Below are positions 4,901 to 35,126 of a stretch of 41,676 bases of DNA, piece by piece. The stretch is from Candidatus Dormiibacterota bacterium (GTDB lineage: Bacteria > Chloroflexota > Dormibacteria > Aeolococcales > Aeolococcaceae). Location: positions 1-41,676 of the forward strand of contig DASXNK010000185.1 of assembly GCA_036495095.1 (NCBI GenBank), written 5' to 3'. The translations under genes and the position numbers were made by a program. Under the pieces are notes generated by a model. It saw only the letters and a program-made list of their open reading frames with translations, was not told the DNA's origin and did not search any database. Within the stretch, counting starts at the first letter, position 1. Each line of letters opens with the position of its first letter.

Positions 4901-6321
4901 GTGACCCCGGGCAGGTTGTCGCCGGCGCTGTCCTGCACGTTGGCGGTGGCGATGCTGGAGTTGTTGACGCCCATGTGGATGTGGCTGGGCGCCAGGCCGA
5001 GATGGACCGCCGCCGGCGGACCCAGGCTGGTGACCGACGCGGTCCTGGTGACCGGACCGGTCTGGGCGCCGCCCGCGGGGTAGGCCACGCTCGGGTCGGC
5101 CGCGGTCAGCACGGTGATGCCGGGGGTGGAGCTGGCGGTGACGGTCACGGTGTAGGTGCCGTCGTGGTTGTCGCTCACCGCGCCCAGGTGCGCAGGGCCC
5201 TGGCCGGTGATGGCGACGTGCTCATTCGGGACCGGGTTGCCGTGGGCGTCGGTGATCGTCGCCTTCGCGACCGTCGAGGCCGGCGGGTTGGCGGTCGTCG
5301 AGATCGTCGAGGCGGCGACGCTGAACGCGATGCCCGCGGCCGGCCCGGGGTTCACGGTGAGCGCCACGGCGGCAGAGGTGGCACCCGCGTCGGTGGCGGT
5401 GATGTGCTCGACGCCGGAGACGGTGGAGGCGTGGAACGTGGTGGTGTAGGTGCCGTCCGTCGCCGGGGTCGCCGGGTCGATGGCGACGTGGCCGTCGGTG
5501 TGGAAGACCACGGTATCGGCGCCACGTGCGTTGCCGAAGGCGTCGGTGACGCTCACCTTGCCGGTGGTGGTGGAGGCGCCGTCGGCGGTGATCGCGGTGG
5601 GGGCCGTCACCCAGGCGATGTGGCTGGGCGGCCCGGGGATCTCGGCGAGGGTGGTCGTCGCGGTCAGCGCCGTGGCCGGCGTGCTGTCGGTGGCGGTGAG
5701 CGTCTCCATGTCGGCGACGGTGCCCGCGGTGACGGTGGCCGAGTAGGTGCCGTCCTGGTTGTTGGCGACCGCGCCGATCGTGACCCTGCCCGCCCCGCTG
5801 CTCCTGGCGGCCAGGCCGATGGAGTCGACGGGGACGCCGACCCCTGCGGAGTCGGTGGTGGTCATGGTGGCGACCACGCTGCTCTTCCCGTCGGCGACCA
5901 CCTGCGGCTGGCTGAGGCTGATGGCGAGGCCGGTGGCGGTGCCGTACTGGTTGATGGTCGCGGTGCCGACCACCGACGACTGGGTGTCGATGACCGTGAT
6001 CTGCGGCCGCCCCGGTGTGCTGCCCGCGACGAAGGTCGCCTGGGCGCTGTCGAAGAGCCCGGTGTCGGTGGGGGGCGGGCTGGCGAAGTGGCCGGAGCCG
6101 GTGATGCCCCAGCGGATCTGACGGAAGGACTGGCTGGTGTTCCCGGCGCGGACATTGGCGGTGACGGTGATCGTGCTGGTGCCGTTGGCGGGCACAAACG
6201 CCGAGGAGAGGGTCAGGTTGACGGTGATCTGCGACGCCGCCTGCGAGGACGCGATCGTCAGTCCACCGAAGAGGGTGGCGAGCAGACCCGCCCCCAGGAT
6301 CAACCACTTCCGCGCAAACAT
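1972..6321 (-). CDS. Giant secreted Ig-repeat (Big_1/invasin-like) protein with C-terminal DUF4214
   Basis: This encodes 1449 residues from ATG 6321, with a GAGGAGA ribosome site upstream. Residues 1-30 (MFARKWLILGAGLLATLFGG then an Ala-rich stretch) form a signal peptide. From about 30 to 1240 there are roughly twelve Ig-like repeats of 95-105 residues, each with a TxTVTDAxGNPVPGxxV core, a DGTYTxTxTAST strand and an ETxTATD strand; this is the invasin/intimin Big_1 pattern. The last 200 residues hold four copies of a YQxxLGRxxDxxGxxYWxxQL unit with SPEYF motifs, typical of DUF4214. There is no LPXTG motif, and I did not see a C-terminal membrane anchor. Likely role: a long surface or matrix stalk with DUF4214 as its functional or attachment tip. 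An equally long plus-strand reading frame lies opposite and is taken as a composition artefact. Confidence 0.9.
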   Translation of the reverse strand: MFARKWLILGAGLLATLFGGLTIASSQAASQITVNLTLSSAFVPANGTSTITVTANVRAGNTSQSFRQIRWGITGSGHFASPPPTDTGLFDSAQATFVAGSTPGRPQITVIDTQSSVVGTATINQYGTATGLAISLSQPQVVADGKSSVVATMTTTDSAGVGVPVDSIGLAARSSGAGRVTIGAVANNQDGTYSATVTAGTVADMETLTATDSTPATALTATTTLAEIPGPPSHIAWVTAPTAITADGASTTTGKVSVTDAFGNARGADTVVFHTDGHVAIDPATPATDGTYTTTFHASTVSGVEHITATDAGATSAAVALTVNPGPAAGIAFSVAASTISTTANPPASTVAKATITDAHGNPVPNEHVAITGQGPAHLGAVSDNHDGTYTVTVTASSTPGITVLTAADPSVAYPAGGAQTGPVTRTASVTSLGPPAAVHLGLAPSHIHMGVNNSSIATANVQDSAGDNLPGVTVTFGNDTGDVNFSNSGTGTTDATGSAHVQVNGAAYAGPQKVFASAGNITTMAVLTEYDHPTAMHVTVSPSTITADGNVGTAATAVVTVTDAGGNGVPGQTFTMTRTGNGTLFPAVDEGDGTYRAVVVSSKTAQTETVNVNDASAALTATTTFIEVAGPAATVTVSPNPASMTADGAATQVLTATVRDVNGNPVGGEHVGFTTSGHASFGSVTAGAAPGTYVATAHASTIAGTETVTATDSTPAQPISGTASLKLVPGAPTHLAVTPGAASLVADGHSTTTVGVRIEDAHANGVYGEHLTVGDALAQGATGAADLGSAVVDNGDGTCTVTLTASTTADTETITVADGSLSGSVLVTENPGPAAKVTVSTPTASIPADQTTGVGFTATVTDANGNAVKGDSIHFTGDGGVTFPGTTTAVGDGTYTATATPGTTAGTKTITATDASVTTAVVAGQATLTETPGAPATLTLAQSAGRMIADGTSTTTLTATVADRNHNGVPGRTLGVTAAVNGGGTAGIRSAVTDNHDGTYTVTLTSGTRADIETVTVTDGGPGAGTTATPSTTASATITQVAGPAASVAVALTANSTVTANGSDQRTVTVTVTDANGNPVSGEPVGLFASGAASFASTSLTTAADGTASTLVTASRTAGRETITATDGSTHVQGVATLTENAGPAASISVTVPSSNLTDDGRSTVAVSAVVRDANGNPVPGAQVTFSVAGNLVTLSPAGAVADASGTAATTARARTTTGTETVTATAGAVSGGVTLTLSDQDRVAGFVKAAYQTLLGRTVDANGLAYWSNAIRGGMSRPQFAATITSSNEYRSNLVSRMYRPYLHRGSDSAGVNYWTGQIANGATIEQVRLSFIGSPEYFQVHGGTSRGAVDALYQDVLGRSVDAGGEQYWVQQLDSHQLSFSQLAASILYSEEGREHLVNGIYQDVLGRTAPTGDLAYWAGQLRNGARDETIVNLFVGSPEYYGNIH

Positions 6322-28527: not shown

Positions 28528-28614
28528 GGCGCGTCTCCTCGTCCCCAGCGGCGTCGGCGACCAGTGTGGGCGCAGCGACCGGGCGCCGTCATCCCGCGGT
28601 CACACCTCCGGGCG

Positions 28615-28620
28615 TATAAC
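28615..28620 (+). promoter_or_regulatory. -10 box giving a leaderless mRNA
   Basis: TATAAC ends 6 nt before the A of ATG 28627, so transcription would begin at or next to the start codon. No ribosome binding site is present, which agrees. Confidence 0.5.
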
Positions 28621-28626
28621 CAGTGC

Positions 28627-29379
28627 ATGAGCCCCGGTCCCGAGGACGTGCTCCGCGGGCGGCCGGTGGGCCGCCGGCTCTTCCTCGCGCTGCTCGGCGC
28701 CGGCACCGCCGGGCTCGCCCTCACCCGTTTCGCCTACGCGGGTGACGACGCCACCCCGGGCAATGTCGCCACCGCGGTGCCGGTGGGGTCGATGACCCCC
28801 GACGACCGCGAGCCGCTGGAGGGGATCCACCCCAACATCGTCCCGCCGGAGCGCTTCCGCTACTACTCGGTGGGCGACATCCCCAGCTTCACCGAGCGCT
28901 CCTGGCGGCTGACCGTCGACGGGGCCGGGCTCGACGGGTCGATGACCCTGCGGCTCGCCGACCTCAGATCCTTTCCCAACGTCGCGATCCGATCCACCTT
29001 CCGCTGTGTCACCGGCTGGCGGGTGCGCGACTGCATCTGGCGCGGGGTGCGGGTGCGCGACCTCGTCGACGCCAACCGCCCCAACGGCGGCGCCCGGCAC
29101 ATCACCTTCTACGCCGGCGACGGCGTCTACACCGACAGCCTCACCATCGGGCAGGCGCGCAGCGACCACGCGCTGCTCGCCTGGGAGCTGAACGGGCGCC
29201 CGCTGATCCGCGAGCAGGGCGCCCCGCTGCGGCTGATCTATCCCGACATGTACGGCTACAAGAACGTGAAGTGGCTGCGCCGCATCGAGGTGAAGCCGGT
29301 GCACGACCTCGGGTTCTGGGAGCAGCGCGGCTGGGACGACAACGCCTACGTCTACACCCCGCCGCCTGCGCGTGGATGA
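28627..29379 (+). CDS. Molybdopterin-dependent oxidoreductase, sulfite oxidase/MsrP-like
   Basis: This encodes 250 residues. GRRLFLALLGAGTAGLALTR is a Tat-like signal, and the mature part is outside. The Oxidored_molyb fold shows in WRLTVDGAGLDGSMTLRLAD and STFRCVTGW, whose Cys127 is the molybdenum ligand. RHITFYAGDGVYTDSL and GAPLRLIYPDMYGYKNVKWL are further family motifs. It is close in length to MsrP/YedY and lacks the dimerisation domain of sulfite oxidase. The next gene is a b-type cytochrome overlapping by 8 nt, so electrons probably pass to or from the membrane quinone pool. The substrate is unknown; methionine sulfoxide in proteins is the best-known one for MsrP. Confidence 0.92.
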   Translation: MSPGPEDVLRGRPVGRRLFLALLGAGTAGLALTRFAYAGDDATPGNVATAVPVGSMTPDDREPLEGIHPNIVPPERFRYYSVGDIPSFTERSWRLTVDGAGLDGSMTLRLADLRSFPNVAIRSTFRCVTGWRVRDCIWRGVRVRDLVDANRPNGGARHITFYAGDGVYTDSLTIGQARSDHALLAWELNGRPLIREQGAPLRLIYPDMYGYKNVKWLRRIEVKPVHDLGFWEQRGWDDNAYVYTPPPARG

Positions 29380-30034
29380 GCCGCGCCCGCGGCTGGTGGA
29401 ACGGTTCACCAGAGCGGAGCGCACCCTGCACTGGACCTATGCGCTCCTCTTCCTGATCCTGCTGCTCAGCGGCCTCGGGCTCTACCTCGGTCCCGGCGAC
29501 AACCCGGTGCTCGACCGCCGCGAGCTGATGCGCAGCATCCACCTCGACGCCGCGGTCGCGCTCTGCGGGCTCTTCCTGCTGGTCGCCGCCGGCAGCCCGG
29601 GCACGCTGCGACGGCTGTGGCGCGACGTCGAGTGGTTCGACCGCGACGACGCCCGCTGGCTGCTGCGGGTGTGGCTGCCGGCGCGACTGCGCCGCCGCCC
29701 GCTGCCGCCGCAGGGTCGCTTCAACGCGGGGCAGAAGCTCAACACCGTGCTCACCGCCGCCGCCACCGTCGGGCTGACCCTCACCGGGACGCTGATGTTC
29801 GGCGGTGGCCACCTGCCCACCAGCCTCAGCGAGTCCGCGGACACCTGGCACCTGCTGCTGATGAAGGCGATGTACCCGCTGGTGGTCGGCCACCTGGTGA
29901 TCGCCCTGCTGCTGCCCTCGACCCGCGGCGCCCTCCGCGGCATCGTCACCGGGCGGGTGCGCCTCGACTTCGCGCGCCGCCGTCACGCCCGCTGGGCGGA
30001 CCCGGTGGAGAGCTCGGACCGCGAGGCGACCTGA
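29372..30034 (+). CDS. Cytochrome b561-like membrane subunit
   Basis: This encodes 220 residues with a GTG start at 29372, overlapping the oxidoreductase gene. About four membrane helices carry histidines for heme b: ERTLHWTYALLFLILLLSGL, LMRSIHLDAAVALCGLFLLV, a third helix NTVLTAAATVGLTLTGTLMF, and TWHLLLMKAMYPLVVGHLVI. The pattern matches the diheme b-type subunits of formate dehydrogenase and related periplasmic oxidoreductases rather than MsrQ. It is likely the quinone-linked partner of the preceding molybdopterin protein. Confidence 0.88.
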   Translation: MDEPRPRLVERFTRAERTLHWTYALLFLILLLSGLGLYLGPGDNPVLDRRELMRSIHLDAAVALCGLFLLVAAGSPGTLRRLWRDVEWFDRDDARWLLRVWLPARLRRRPLPPQGRFNAGQKLNTVLTAAATVGLTLTGTLMFGGGHLPTSLSESADTWHLLLMKAMYPLVVGHLVIALLLPSTRGALRGIVTGRVRLDFARRRHARWADPVESSDREAT

Positions 30035-30156
30035 GAGTCACGCGACCCGCAAGTATTGCCGGGCCGGCGTCGTTGTTTCAGAGCACCCGTGAACCCTCTC
30101 CCCGGCGGACGGGGAACACCCCGGCGAGCGTGACAGCGCTCTCCGGAGACTGAGAG

Positions 30157-30168
30157 AAGGAGGTGATT
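30157..30168 (+). promoter_or_regulatory. Near-perfect Shine-Dalgarno sequence before a 14-codon ORF
   Basis: AAGGAGGTGATT spans 12 bases fully complementary to the usual 16S rRNA 3' end (AAUCACCUCCUU), 3 nt before ATG 30172. It is the strongest ribosome site noticed in the window. Confidence 0.7.
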
Positions 30169-30171
30169 CTG

Positions 30172-30216
30172 ATGGCGACTTGGACCGGCCACGAGATCCA
30201 CGGAAGCTGGGTCTGA
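30172..30216 (+). CDS. Putative 14-residue peptide MATWTGHEIHGSWV
   Basis: ATG 30172 to TGA 30214-30216 encodes MATWTGHEIHGSWV. Support comes from the near-perfect ribosome site just upstream and its place in a hairpin-rich region. Two of fourteen residues are Trp and two are His, far above average. It could be a leader peptide whose translation controls the genes downstream, a tiny functional or signalling peptide, or a modified-peptide precursor; no modifying enzyme is adjacent. Chance occurrence cannot be excluded because the ORF is so short. The next gene in the same direction is the receiver/degenerate-GGDEF protein, 243 nt downstream. Confidence 0.5.
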   Translation: MATWTGHEIHGSWV

Positions 30217-30341
30217 ATCCTGACCCGCCTTGATTCTCGATGCACAGCGATGACCGCCGGATGGCGGTGCTGTCGCGATGATGTTCCCGCCCGGCCGCTC
30301 GGCGCAGCGGCCTGATGGAGCCGGCCTTAACGATTGCTGGC

Positions 30342-30370
30342 GTCCCCGGCGTGCGGCGCACGCCGGGGAC
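30342..30370 (+). terminator. 13-bp perfect hairpin upstream of the receiver gene
   Basis: 30342-30354 pairs fully with 30358-30370 around a 3-nt loop ggc. No T-run follows. In front of a gene rather than behind one, it may act as an attenuator or as the terminator of the small-ORF transcript. Confidence 0.55.
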
Positions 30371-30459
30371 AGCGGCCACAGCGGGCCTTGGCAAGTCACC
30401 CTCGACAGCGGATACTGCGCGAACGCCCGTTCAGAGCACCGCGCACCCGAGGAGAGGCA

Positions 30460-31359
30460 TTGGCGCACGAGGACCCGATTCCGGCCGCGGCCGCGGCGGA
30501 CGCCGTGCCCGTTCCCGTCGAGGTCGTCCCCGAGGGCACCGGGCGGATCCGGCCCGACCAGGCGATCGGCCCCCGCACCGCCTTCGTGGTCGACGCCTCG
30601 GCGAGCATGCAGCTGATCTCCACCACCCTCCTGCGCATCGCCGGCTTCACCGTCGAGTGCTTCGGCGCTCCCGCCGCGGCGGTGCAGCGCTCCATCGACA
30701 ACTGCCCCGACCTGATGGTGGTGGAGCCGCGCAGCCCCGGCATCGACGCCCTCGCGACCATGCGCGTGCTCCACGAGCTGCACCGCAAGCGCAGGCCGGT
30801 GGTGGTCTGGTGCACCACCGTCGTCCCCGACGCCGACCAGGTGGAGGAGGGCTCGCGGCTGGGGCTGCGCGGGGTGATCATCAAGCCCTTCCGGCTGGAG
30901 GCGCTCACCTCGCTGGTGCTGCGCGTCTGCCGCGACGAGGATCGCGAGCGACGGCTCCGACGGCGCGGGGTCCCCACCGAGCAGCTGGCGGCGCGCAACC
31001 TCGACGCCCGGGCGACGCGGCTGTGGGCGGAGGCGGAGGCCGAGGCCGACCTCGCCGCCGGCGCACCGCGTCCGCTCTCGATGGTACGGGTGTGGGCACC
31101 CGGCGCCGAGATCGGCGCCGCGGTGCGGGGTGCGCTCCGCTCCACCGACACGGTGGGACGCGCCCCCGACGGCAGCCTGGTCGTCCTCCTCCCCGACGTC
31201 GACGCCGCCGGAGCCGCCGCGGTGGCGACCCGCCTGGCCCGGGCGGTCGCTGGGGTCGCGGCGGGGGCGCTGGTGCTCCCGGTCACGCGCCGTCCCGAGG
31301 AGGCACCGATCGAGCTGCTCGATCGCCCGCTTCCGGAGGCCACCCCCCAGGCCGGCTGA
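30460..31359 (+). CDS. Atypical receiver-domain protein with degenerate GGDEF-like C-terminus
   Basis: This encodes 299 residues. The start is TTG 30460, preceded by GAGGAG; the earlier in-frame ATG at 30334 would run through the hairpin region. The receiver (about 38-155) begins TAFVVDASASMQLISTTLLR and keeps Thr119/120 and Lys142 (IIKPFRL). The phospho-acceptor position reads DLMVVEPRSPGID, Glu89 instead of Asp, which in other receivers can mimic phosphorylation. The C-terminal part (STDTVGRAPDGSLVVLLPDV plus AGAAAVATRLARAV) aligns with the GGDEF strand-turn but APDGS replaces GGDEF, so no diguanylate cyclase activity is expected. Likely role: an always-on or phosphorylation-independent regulator, perhaps binding nucleotide or a partner cyclase. 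Confidence 0.75.
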   Translation: MAHEDPIPAAAAADAVPVPVEVVPEGTGRIRPDQAIGPRTAFVVDASASMQLISTTLLRIAGFTVECFGAPAAAVQRSIDNCPDLMVVEPRSPGIDALATMRVLHELHRKRRPVVVWCTTVVPDADQVEEGSRLGLRGVIIKPFRLEALTSLVLRVCRDEDRERRLRRRGVPTEQLAARNLDARATRLWAEAEAEADLAAGAPRPLSMVRVWAPGAEIGAAVRGALRSTDTVGRAPDGSLVVLLPDVDAAGAAAVATRLARAVAGVAAGALVLPVTRRPEEAPIELLDRPLPEATPQAG

Positions 31360-32561
31360 TCCGGGCGGCAGCGGAGGAGGACCCGGCCACGCGTCCCTTT
31401 CCCCGCTACATCACCGCGGCGACGCTGTCCCTCTACGGCGACTGGTTCAGCACCGTGGCCATCGTCGTCCTGCTGCTCGACCTCACCGGGTCGAGCGCGG
31501 CTCCGGCGCTCTACATGCTCGCCCGGGTGGTGCCCCGGCTGGCCGGGGCGGTGATGGGTGGCGAGCTCGCCGACCGGCTCCCGCCCCAGCGGGTGGCCGC
31601 CGCGGTGGCCGCCCTCCAGGGCCTGCTCATGGCCTCGATCATCGTGTCGGCGGGCCGGCACATGGTCTGGCCGATCTACCTGGCGGTGGCGGTCTCGCAG
31701 CTGCTCGGGGCGGTCGCCCGCCCCGCCCTGCTCGCCCTGCTGCCCCGGCTGGTCGTCGAGCACGAGCTGACCCGCGCCAACGCCCTGCTGAGCACGGCGA
31801 TGTCGTCGTCGACGATGGTGGCGCCGGCGCTCTCGGTGCCGCTGCTCGCGCTCTTCGGGCGGCCGGAGGTGCTGATCTACGTCGACGTCGCCAGCTTCGC
31901 GGTCGCCGCACTGCTCCTCGCCTCGCTGCCCGCGGGAGGCCGGGCGGCCGGCGGCGCGCTGCGCGGGGCGCTCGCCGGGGCACGGGTGGTCTGGGGCGAC
32001 GGCCACCTCCGCGCCCTCGCCGGCGCCTACCTCGGCGGCGCGCTGGCGGTCACCACCGCCTCGGCGGTGCTGGTGCTCGCCGCCGCCGAGCGGCTCGGCG
32101 GCGCCGACCGGGTGGGGGCCCTCTACGCCGCGGTCGGCGCCGGCTCGGTGCTCACCAGCGCCCTGGTGATGCGCCGCGGCGCGATCCGGGTGATGAGGAG
32201 CACCCTGGTCGCCGGCGCCCTCGCAGAGATCGTGCTGCTCGCCGTCTTCACCCTCTGCCAGGGGCTGTGGACCGCGGGGCTCGCCCTCGCCGCCAGCTCG
32301 GGGGTGGCCTCGATGTACCAGGTCTGGGGCTCGACCGAGCTCCAGCTGCGCGCCGACCCGGAGGTGCTCGGCCGCGCCGGGGCCGCGCTGGTGGCGGCGC
32401 AGTACACGGGGATGATCCTGGGCGCCCTGCTCGCCACCGTCCTGGTGCCCCTCCTGGGGTGGGACCGCGCCCTCTACGCGGCCTGCTGCCTCGGCCTGGT
32501 GACGGTCGCCGCCACGATCACCGGACCGGAGCGCACCGGCGCCCCCCAGCCGGCCCTGTAA
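31356..32561 (+). CDS. Major facilitator superfamily exporter (EntS-like MFS)
   Basis: This encodes about 401 residues and roughly eleven to twelve membrane helices. TM1 begins YITAATLSLYGDWFSTVAIV; GGELADRLPPQRV between TM2 and TM3 is the MFS loop, and RPALLALLPRLVVEHELTRA is typical of the EntS/MFS_3 branch of drug and siderophore exporters. The frame has no ATG, GTG or TTG between the upstream shadow region and TM1. The only plausible starts are CTG 31356, overlapping the receiver stop as CTGA, or a non-AUG codon near 31387 placed just after a GGAGGAGG run (31372-31379). The first ATG (31516) would delete TM1. The substrate is unknown. Confidence 0.85.
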   Translation: MIRAAAEEDPATRPFPRYITAATLSLYGDWFSTVAIVVLLLDLTGSSAAPALYMLARVVPRLAGAVMGGELADRLPPQRVAAAVAALQGLLMASIIVSAGRHMVWPIYLAVAVSQLLGAVARPALLALLPRLVVEHELTRANALLSTAMSSSTMVAPALSVPLLALFGRPEVLIYVDVASFAVAALLLASLPAGGRAAGGALRGALAGARVVWGDGHLRALAGAYLGGALAVTTASAVLVLAAAERLGGADRVGALYAAVGAGSVLTSALVMRRGAIRVMRSTLVAGALAEIVLLAVFTLCQGLWTAGLALAASSGVASMYQVWGSTELQLRADPEVLGRAGAALVAAQYTGMILGALLATVLVPLLGWDRALYAACCLGLVTVAATITGPERTGAPQPAL

Positions 32562-32654: not shown

Positions 32655-35126
32655 GTGCAGCGTCAGAGGGATGATGCGACCTGGGCTCACCGTGCCCCGT
32701 GGCTGGTCGGCGCCCTGATGCGGGTGATGGGGCCGCAGCCGCCGCCGACCCGGGTGACCTTCAGCCGGCCCCTGGTCGCCTACGTGTCGGCCGTCGGGGT
32801 GGTGGCGCTGCTCGTCACCGCCCGGCTGATGACCAGACCCACCGACCTGATCGGGGTCGCCCTGGTGAGCGCCGCCATCCTCGGCATGTCGCTGGTGAGC
32901 ACCCGGATCGGCTCGCTGCGGATGAGCGTCAGCGCCACCTCCTTCCTCCACCTCGGCCTGGCCATCACCACCGGCCCCTTCGGGGTGGTGGCGGCCTCGC
33001 TGGCGGAGACGGTGGCGGTGGCGGTGCGCTTCCGCAGCGGCTGGTTCCGGAGCATCTTCAACCTCGCCAACAGCCTGCTCTGCGGGGTGACGGCGTGGGC
33101 CACCTACCACGCCCTGCTCCCGATCGGGGGCCCGGTGGCGGTGCGGGACGGCCTCGCCGGCATCGGCGCCGGGGCGGCCCACTACGCCATCAACTACGGG
33201 CTCATCGCCGGGGTGCTGACCCTCGCCACCGGCAAGCCGCTCCGGGTGCACCTGCGCGCCGCGCTCTCCGCCTGCCCGTATCACCTGATGTACGGCTACG
33301 CGGCGGTCGCCTTCGTGGTGCTCCGCGACCACTTCGGGCCGTGGGGCTTCACCTTCGCCCTTGCGCCGGTGGCCGCCCTGCAGCTCAACCTGATGATCCT
33401 CGCCAGCCGCTCCGCCGCCCACGAGCGCGAGCGCGCCGCCGCCGACGAGGCGCTGCGGGTCAGCGAGCGCAGCTTCCGGGTGCTCTTCGCCTCCAACCCG
33501 CACCCGATGTGGGTGGTCGACGCGGTCTCGCTCGGGTTCATCGCCGTCAACGACGCCGCGGTCGCCCAGTACGGCTACTCCAGCGACGAGTTCCTCACCA
33601 GCCGGCTCGAGGACATCACCGACACCCGTGGGATCGTGCGCCACTGGGACCCCTCGACCGAGCGCGACGTCCGCCGGCTGCAGCAGCGCCACCGGCTGCG
33701 CGGCGGCGAGGTCATCGAGGTGGAGGTGAGCGCCCACGCCACCGACTTCGAGGGCCGCGACGCGGTGCTGGTGCTCGCCCAGGACATCACCGAGCGGGTC
33801 CGGCTGGAGGAGCAGCTCCGCGACCAGGCGCTCCACGACCCGCTCACCCGCCTCCCCAACCGCCTGCTGCTCCAGGACCGGATCGACCACGCCCTCGCCC
33901 GCCAGCGCCGTACCCAGCGGCCCTTCGCGCTCCTCCTCCTCGACCTCGACAACTTCAAGACCGTCAACGACAGCCTCGGCCACGCCGCCGGCGACCACCT
34001 CCTCGTCGCCGTGGCGAAGCGGCTCACCGACTGCCTGCGCGCCTCGGACAGCGCCGCCCGGCTGGGCGGCGACGAGTTCGCCATCCTCCTCGAGGACGCC
34101 GGCGGGCCCGACCACGTCGCCCCGGTCGCCGAGCGGCTGGTCGACGCGCTGCGCCAGCCGTTCATCGTCGAGCAGCGGGAGATCTTCCTCGGGGTGAGCA
34201 TCGGCGTCGCCATCAGCGACGCCAGCCGGCTGAGCGCGGACGAGATGCTCCGCGACGCCGACCTCGCCATGTACGCGGCCAAGGCGCAGGGGCGCGGCCG
34301 CCACGTCGTCTTCAGCCCGCGGATGCGCGAGGCGGCGCTCGACCGGGTCGCGCTCGAGCACGACCTCCGCCGCGCGGTCACCGCCGGCGACCTCCACCTC
34401 GTCTATCAGCCGCAGATCGACCTGCGCAGCGGCGAGACCGTGGGCGTCGAGGCGCTGGTGCGCTGGCGCCACCCGGTGCTCGGGATGGTGCCCCCGGACC
34501 GCTTCATCCCCCTCGCCGAGGAGGCGGGGATGATCGGGGCCCTCGACGCCTGGGTGCTGGAGACCGCCTGCGCCCAGACCCGGGCGTGGCGCGAGGCCGG
34601 CGCCGGCGGGCTCCAGGTCGCCGTCAACCTCAGCGGCACCGAGTTCGAGGACGCCGAGCTGGTCGACCGGGTCGCCGAGGTGCTCGCCCGCCACGACCTC
34701 CGGCCCGCCGACCTGGAGCTCGAGATCACCGAGCGGGTGGCGGTGCAGCAGGAGCGCTCCGCCCGCCAGACCCTCGACCGGCTGCGGGCGATGGGGGTGC
34801 GCATCGCCATCGACGACTTCGGCACCGGCTACTCGATGCTCGCCAGCCTGCGCCAGTTCCCCGGCGACAAGCTGAAGATCGACAAGTCGTTCGTCCAGGA
34901 GATCGTCGACACCCAGGACCGCGCCCCGCTGGTCGCGGCGATCGTCGCCATGGGCCACGGGCTCGGCCTGGAGGTGGTCGCCGAGGGGGTGGAGACCGAG
35001 GAGCAGCTCGCCGTGCTCCGCCGGCTCCGCTGCGACGGCGCCCAGGGCTACCTGCTCGGCCGTCCCGCCGACCCGCACGTGGTCGAGCAGCGGGTGCTCG
35101 CCGAGCGGGGGGCGGTGACCGCCTGA
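32655..35126 (+). CDS. Membrane PAS-GGDEF-EAL cyclic-di-GMP protein
   Basis: This encodes 823 residues with a GTG start at 32655. Residues 40-255 form a MASE-like sensor of about six to eight helices (RPLVAYVSAVGVVALLVTAR and following). A PAS domain is next (RSFRVLFASNPHPMWVVDAV to AQDITERVRLEEQL). The GGDEF domain has LDLDNFKTVND and intact Gly471-Phe475 in RLGGDEF, plus an inhibitory site RxxD at 462-465. The EAL domain has Glu599 in VEALVRW, NLSGTEFED, ELEITERV, DDFGTGYS (Asp720/721), KIDKSFV and EGVETEEQ. Both synthesis and hydrolysis of c-di-GMP are therefore possible, with the membrane and PAS parts probably choosing between them. Confidence 0.95.
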   Translation: MQRQRDDATWAHRAPWLVGALMRVMGPQPPPTRVTFSRPLVAYVSAVGVVALLVTARLMTRPTDLIGVALVSAAILGMSLVSTRIGSLRMSVSATSFLHLGLAITTGPFGVVAASLAETVAVAVRFRSGWFRSIFNLANSLLCGVTAWATYHALLPIGGPVAVRDGLAGIGAGAAHYAINYGLIAGVLTLATGKPLRVHLRAALSACPYHLMYGYAAVAFVVLRDHFGPWGFTFALAPVAALQLNLMILASRSAAHERERAAADEALRVSERSFRVLFASNPHPMWVVDAVSLGFIAVNDAAVAQYGYSSDEFLTSRLEDITDTRGIVRHWDPSTERDVRRLQQRHRLRGGEVIEVEVSAHATDFEGRDAVLVLAQDITERVRLEEQLRDQALHDPLTRLPNRLLLQDRIDHALARQRRTQRPFALLLLDLDNFKTVNDSLGHAAGDHLLVAVAKRLTDCLRASDSAARLGGDEFAILLEDAGGPDHVAPVAERLVDALRQPFIVEQREIFLGVSIGVAISDASRLSADEMLRDADLAMYAAKAQGRGRHVVFSPRMREAALDRVALEHDLRRAVTAGDLHLVYQPQIDLRSGETVGVEALVRWRHPVLGMVPPDRFIPLAEEAGMIGALDAWVLETACAQTRAWREAGAGGLQVAVNLSGTEFEDAELVDRVAEVLARHDLRPADLELEITERVAVQQERSARQTLDRLRAMGVRIAIDDFGTGYSMLASLRQFPGDKLKIDKSFVQEIVDTQDRAPLVAAIVAMGHGLGLEVVAEGVETEEQLAVLRRLRCDGAQGYLLGRPADPHVVEQRVLAERGAVTA

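What the first reader, a model, noticed from the sequence alone, without database searches (positions are those of the whole stretch)
30099..30459. Structured leader with a 14-codon Trp/His-rich ORF and a near-perfect ribosome site
The 425-nt gap before the receiver gene holds a micro-ORF, MATWTGHEIHGSWV, behind AAGGAGGTGATT, the best ribosome site I saw in the window. Hairpins lie on both sides, including a 13-bp perfect stem at 30342-30370 between the ORF and the next gene. This is the layout of a translation-sensing leader, or of a tiny peptide gene with its own terminator. The downstream genes are regulatory and export functions, not amino-acid synthesis, so classical attenuation does not explain it. 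Function is inference; the elements are seen directly.
Basis: partly seen in the sequence, partly recalled or inferred. Interest (0 to 1): 0.65.

Follow-up and report, generated by a model that had tools for sequence, protein, structure and literature searches.

The report
Tiny tryptophan peptide gene beside exporter
The 14-codon reading frame is a real, conserved micro-gene for a tryptophan-capped mini-peptide that travels with a membrane exporter and a membrane sensor in one order of Chloroflexota bacteria, and it probably encodes a secreted signal or effector rather than a leader that regulates the next gene.

Summary
The ORF MATWTGHEIHGSWV (30172-30216) has an 11-nt match to the perfect Shine-Dalgarno sequence, the longest in the window. 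It belongs to a family of about 50 tiny ORFs (6-15 codons, Trp at or near the last codon; main class M-[AGS]-[TSNV]-W...W-x). The family recurs in two families of one Chloroflexota order, next to one kind of MFS exporter and a polytopic sensor. The sensor's membrane domain has no Pfam family; its output is GGDEF-EAL (window), HD-GYP, or histidine kinase plus lone receiver. In the sister family the micro-ORF lies on the strand OPPOSITE the MFS (12 of 13 loci), followed by its own hairpin terminators; two rearranged first-family loci also have it opposite. It therefore cannot be a cis leader of the MFS there. In the window a terminator-like hairpin overlaps its stop, and a promoter-like site follows before the receiver gene. 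Best reading: an independent peptide gene whose product is exported by the MFS and probably sensed by the neighbouring sensor. That it is a conserved peptide gene in a cassette is well supported; export and sensing are inferred. Attenuation is disfavoured.

The parts
30157..30168 (+). Extended Shine-Dalgarno AAGGAGGTGATT of the micro-ORF
   Evidence: Seen in sequence; longest SD match in the window; identical core in G002 and G010
30172..30216 (+). Micro-gene: 14 codons MATWTGHEIHGSWV plus TGA
   Evidence: Family of about 50 relatives; shuffle test; third-position excess of changes
30208..30227 (+). Terminator-like hairpin overlapping the micro-ORF stop codon, tail CCTTGATTCT
   Evidence: Consensus scan, 2 found versus 0.1 expected in the region; hairpins at the same place in several relatives
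30342..30370 (+).
   Evidence: Self-match, fold; shorter altered stem in G002
30388..30416 (+). Promoter-like TTGGCA-17-GATACT for the receiver-MFS-GGDEF/EAL genes
   Evidence: Only promoter-like site in 29980-30480, 0.0 expected; same hexamers in G002. Consensus match only
30460..31359 (+). Receiver-domain protein (PF00072), TTG start; present only in the window's genus
   Evidence: Pfam; relatives
31389..32561 (+). MFS exporter, TIGR00900-related; true start codon uncertain
   Evidence: Families; relatives
32655..35126 (+). Polytopic sensor with PAS, GGDEF and EAL domains; membrane domain about 32751-33416
   Evidence: Pfam; shared membrane domain; model

Best explanation
The micro-ORF is an independent gene for a ready-made mini-peptide. 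It is translated from a near-perfect ribosome site; the initiator Met is probably removed, since residue 2 is always Ala, Ser or Gly in the main class. The adjacent MFS exporter carries the peptide out of the cell, and the neighbouring polytopic sensor probably detects it and passes the signal to c-di-GMP enzymes (GGDEF-EAL here, HD-GYP in others) or to a histidine kinase plus lone receiver. Shown by sequence: conserved peptide gene, conserved three-part cassette, independence of strand from the MFS, hairpin terminators in the sister family. Inferred: translation, Met removal, export, sensing and the outcome.
For: Family of W-ended micro-ORFs beside the MFS in f1, above shuffles, with more third-position change. 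In f2 the micro-ORF is on the opposite strand in 12 of 13 loci and is followed by strong hairpins, one scored as an intrinsic terminator. Rearranged loci G025 C136 and G031 C166 also have it opposite to the MFS, on its 3' side. Sensor membrane domain shared across three output types, mostly single copy, and beside an MFS of this family nearly wherever the contig allows. MFS paralogues have their own, different micro-ORFs. Distant sensor relatives in family f3 lack both MFS and micro-ORF. Sensor model most like ECF S-components, a ligand-binding membrane fold (weak). Window: terminator-like hairpin over the stop and promoter-like site downstream.
Against: No expression, export or binding data. 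MFS specificity cannot be read from sequence: TIGR00900 match is below cut-off. The fold match has E of 0.08 or more. In f1 the micro-ORF precedes the MFS on the same strand and hairpins follow the stop, so an added cis role is not excluded. Tandem g6 MFS2 copies have a micro-ORF but no sensor of their own. One f2 locus (G043) has no recognisable micro-ORF.
Confidence: 0.5

Rival explanations
1. Cis-acting leader peptide: ribosome stalling or Trp-codon reading in the micro-ORF changes RNA folding and so controls the downstream exporter genes.
For: In f1 the ORF lies upstream of the MFS on the same strand; hairpins follow the stop in many members; regulatory uORFs before resistance genes are well known (PMC12121999); the MFS is distantly Mef-like; Trp codons are conserved.
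Against: Opposite strand to the MFS in 12 f2 and 2 f1 loci; promoter-like site between ORF and downstream genes in the window; no Rfam match; middle residues and length vary between genera.
Confidence: 0.12
2. Microcin-C-like effector: the peptide is the precursor of a secreted inhibitor, the MFS exports it, and the sensor monitors it.
For: E. coli mccA is a 7-codon gene followed by a terminator, in an operon with an export pump (PMC6495379); the layout here is similar.
Against: No modifying enzyme recurs in the neighbourhood; only MFS, sensor and receiver do. MccB was not searched for by profile.
Confidence: 0.15
3. Intracellular micropeptide: the peptide stays inside and binds the MFS or the sensor to tune it.
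For: Each MFS paralogue has its own differing micro-ORF, as expected for a protein-specific partner; tandem g6 MFS2 copies have one without a second sensor.
Against: Only 6-15 residues with a variable middle; the micropeptide subunits of transporters that I know of are longer membrane helices (own knowledge).
Confidence: 0.13

Closest known systems
Microcin C mccABC (E. coli and relatives)
   Same: Tiny precursor gene read at full peptide size, terminator right behind it, export pump in the cluster (PMC6495379)
   Different: No recurrent adenylating or other modifying enzyme here; conserved Trp; a sensor is part of the cassette; peptide gene can be on the other strand
ComQXPA quorum sensing (Bacillus)
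   Same: Short Trp-containing peptide, polytopic membrane sensor; kinase plus receiver in most f1 members
   Different: No ComQ-like modifying gene or long pre-peptide found; sensor output varies (GGDEF-EAL, HD-GYP, kinase); receivers lack a DNA-binding domain; an MFS is constant (comparison from PMC4008528 and PMC5331326 abstracts)
Regulatory uORFs / leader peptides (trpL, erm, vmlR, toiL)
   Same: Tiny ORF with strong SD and hairpins before an exporter gene in f1
   Different: Opposite strand in f2 and in two f1 loci; promoter-like site between ORF and genes in the window
TIGR00900 'H+ antiporter 2A0121' MFS (Mef / EntS-like)
   Same: Best named match of the exporter in the window, G010 and f2
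   Different: 94 bits against a curated cut-off of 319.6: related, not a member

Membership tests
Cis leader peptide / attenuator | Short ORF on the same strand, in the 5' region of the gene it controls | tested here: not met
   Met in most f1 loci; not met in 12 f2 loci and in G025 C136 and G031 C166
Cis leader peptide / attenuator | Mutually exclusive RNA structures switched by ribosome position | tested here: inconclusive
   Hairpins follow the stop in many members, but arms overlap in only some (single-sequence folds); no formal covariation test
Cis leader peptide / attenuator | Expression induced by a drug or by amino-acid shortage | not testable with these tools
   Needs a reporter assay
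Microcin C (mcc) | Precursor gene of about 7 codons followed by a terminator | tested here: met
   6-15 codons; hairpin terminators in f2; terminator-like in the window
Microcin C (mcc) | MccB-type adenylating enzyme in the cluster | tested here: not met
   No third recurrent gene family besides MFS, sensor and receiver in 16 contexts; no profile search for MccB was run
ComQXPA | ComQ isoprenyl transferase beside the peptide gene | tested here: not met
   No such recurrent neighbour; not searched by profile
ComQXPA | Histidine kinase receptor with polytopic membrane part plus DNA-binding response regulator | tested here: not met
   Kinase in most f1, but GGDEF-EAL in the window and HD-GYP in G010 and f2; receivers end without a DNA-binding domain
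TIGR00900 MFS | Score above the curated cut-off | tested here: not met
   94.2 bits versus 319.6
Peptide export-and-sense signalling (general kind) | Peptide gene, exporter and sensor linked across genomes | tested here: met
Peptide export-and-sense signalling (general kind) | Peptide found outside cells and acting through the sensor | not testable with these tools
   Needs mass spectrometry and reporter assays

The most novel reading that the evidence does not exclude
A new class of bacterial peptide signal: precursor-free, 6-15-residue, Trp-capped peptides made at full size by the ribosome, exported by a dedicated MFS and read by a membrane sensor domain with an ECF S-component-like fold that feeds c-di-GMP turnover or a kinase-receiver pair, in one order of Chloroflexota.
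Probability: 0.4. Interest if true: 0.87.

Novelty: new variant of a known kind. Interest (0 to 1): 0.72.

Why it matters
Genes this small are missed by ordinary gene callers, and I know of no described peptide-signalling system in these mostly uncultured Chloroflexota; one literature search for such a system found none. If the peptide is exported and sensed, the cassette gives a genetically minimal, testable peptide-to-c-di-GMP pathway, and the linked sensor and MFS make such peptide genes findable in other genomes.

Tried and rejected
Known RNA families: none at gathering in the window or in 17 relatives' loci; low-threshold hits are chance. A GTDB-wide scan with an SD+WTGHE pattern gave 7 stretches: only G002 and G010 are genuine; the others (L022-L024, L026, L027, and viral contig L029) are longer frames or chance. 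A 400-genome phylum scan for the WTGHE form found only the window and G010. Receiver gene as the constant partner: rejected, found only in the window's genus. My first MFS query was in the wrong frame and was redone. Trp attenuation: not excluded in f1, but the strand reversal in f2 argues against it. A hairpin with a TAACGG loop in f1 spacers might instead be a promoter/operator (TTGGRY-N18-TAACGG, by eye); left open. MFS against solved structures: no sequence match.

Full report
Observation. The 14-codon ORF, its ribosome site and the 13-bp stem are present as described. The SD is the longest match in the window (11 nt, next 8), and this is the only tiny ORF with SD of 5 nt or more and a terminal Trp in the whole 41.7 kb, both strands. 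The region folds modestly better than shuffles (z -2.4). Two elements were missed: a terminator-like hairpin whose stem runs over the stop codon (30208-30227, tail CCTTGATTCT) and a promoter-like TTGGCA-17-GATACT at 30388-30416, both above shuffle expectation. The same two hexamers stand in G002, where the aligned region is 71% identical overall.

Conservation of the peptide. A DNA search of 60 relatives found the region only in G002 (same genus), and the SD+ORF alone, without alignable flanks, in G010 from another genus and between different genes: MATWTGHEIHGSWV, MATWTGHEIHGNWI, MGTWTGHELNANW. Scanning around homologues of the downstream MFS then uncovered the family in f1: MATWGDTESWG, MATWGDIESWG, MATWGDNDSW, MATWGDLENWG, MANWGDNANW, MANWGDVGGWG, MASWGDNYGWG, MASWDNFGWG, MGTWDNQCSYAGWG, MGTWDTQCTFGFSWG, MATWDTQCQHWSWI, MATWDTQCRHSTWI, and the short forms VFNGWS, VFNGWD, VTNGWS, VYHSCDW. 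All 22 loci cut around these ORFs carry one at SD>=4 and 20 at SD>=5, against 0.7-8.7% and 0-2.3% of dinucleotide shuffles. In the 26 ORFs that start with ATG and have Trp as codon 4 (the way this class was picked), residue 2 is always Ala, Ser or Gly. Among same-length pairs within genera (main class plus the short g12 forms), third codon positions differ about twice as often as first and second (0.22 versus 0.11 and 0.13).

The cassette. Gene context was compared in 16 genomes. Two partners recur: the MFS, and a protein whose N-terminal polytopic domain is shared by the window's GGDEF-EAL protein, an HD-GYP protein in G010 and HisKA_3-type kinases elsewhere (one kinase confirmed by Pfam). 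The domain has no Pfam match. It is single copy in most genomes, and 41 of 50 genomes of the order have it. Comparing coordinates, nearly every copy not cut by a contig end sits beside an MFS of this family; G017 C32 is a clear exception. In the kinase versions inspected, a stand-alone receiver without a DNA-binding domain lies next to the kinase. The receiver gene of the window was found only in its genus. Paralogous MFS copies and second cassettes have their own W-ended micro-ORFs: MNSWNGSEITTSWG, MVDGAAWS, MTAGAGWG, MAEGAGWG, MAAGTGWG, VVLTNSW, VVLTSDWG, MYHTNNW, MSHVDLDWVDW, VRDYFREW, MTNGWG, VASWDNDSW. These forms are less constrained than the main class, so single members among them could be chance; the total of about 50 counts them.

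The decisive point. In the sister family f2, whose sensor is HD-GYP, the micro-ORF is again there (MSTWAFSGWG, MSTWAMTGWG, MSTWAMSGWG, MSTWELSEWG, MSTWELSEWA, MSTWDFAEWP, MSTWDSADWG, MSVWEGTGTWG, MSVWEGSGLWG, MSTWDLYEWGGR, MNTWDLWEWTD) but on the strand opposite to the MFS, in 12 of 13 loci. Strong hairpins follow it within about 110 nt in the ten loci folded; that of L150 scores as an intrinsic terminator with a 16-pair stem and T-rich end. The hairpin sits at the end of the convergent sensor gene in the loci inspected (by eye). In G025 C136 and G031 C166 the micro-ORF is also opposite to the MFS and lies on its 3' side. A leader of the MFS mRNA cannot lie on the other strand, so the conserved product is most simply the peptide, expressed from its own unit. 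Outside the order, family f3 has only distant relatives of the sensor domain; in ten loci inspected they lack the MFS and a convincing micro-ORF.

Mechanism. A peptide gene, an exporter and a membrane sensor kept together through changes of orientation and of output domain is what an exported, sensed peptide would look like. The AlphaFold model of the window's sensor domain (pLDDT 74, pTM 0.71, three sequences) is most like S-components of ECF transporters (RibU, NikM, ThiT, CbiM, PanT; probabilities mostly 0.7-0.99 but E 0.08-0.75), a ligand-binding membrane fold; this is suggestive only. Export and sensing are inference. A microcin-C-like effector has a similar layout (PMC6495379) but needs a modifying enzyme that does not recur here. 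A leader role remains possible as a secondary function in f1, where the ORF precedes the MFS and hairpins follow the stop.

Confidence by step (my estimates). Conserved peptide gene: 0.9. Member of an MFS-sensor cassette: 0.9. Not primarily a cis leader: 0.85. Peptide is the MFS substrate: 0.6. Peptide is sensed by the neighbouring sensor: 0.45.

Taxonomy.

Noticed in passing
window 28564-30034: Molybdopterin oxidoreductase (PF00174) and cytochrome b561-type subunit (PF01292) pair upstream of the micro-gene; shared with G002, not beside the cassette elsewhere.
   Followed up: no
window 32751-33416 and homologues: Sensor membrane domain without a Pfam family whose model resembles ECF S-components; swapped onto GGDEF-EAL, HD-GYP and HisKA_3 outputs.
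   Followed up: partly
L138 about 5940-5990 and the f2 relatives: Between the divergent f2 micro-ORF and MFS lies TTGAAG-N17-TAACTA with GTGACGGATCCG in its spacer, by eye in four genomes: a likely shared promoter/operator.
   Followed up: no
about 70-110 nt upstream of micro-ORFs in G007, G011, G012, G016, G020, G026, G030: Near-palindrome GTCTTAAG(AC) recurs, possibly a regulator site.
   Followed up: no
f1 loci, between kinase and neighbouring genes (e.g. G007, G011, G005): The response regulators beside the kinases are receiver-only proteins with NarL-like receivers and no DNA-binding domain.
   Followed up: no
window 31359-31392 and g6 relatives: No ATG, GTG or TTG stands where the window's MFS should start; a rare start codon or a start inside the preceding gene is possible.
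   Followed up: no
32 micro-ORFs tabulated: Stop codons are TGA (22) or TAG (10), never TAA; not compared with genome-wide usage.
   Followed up: no
G016, G007, G026, G028 second MFS: Tandem second MFS genes in genus g6 have short frames ending GWG or AWG close upstream.
   Followed up: partly
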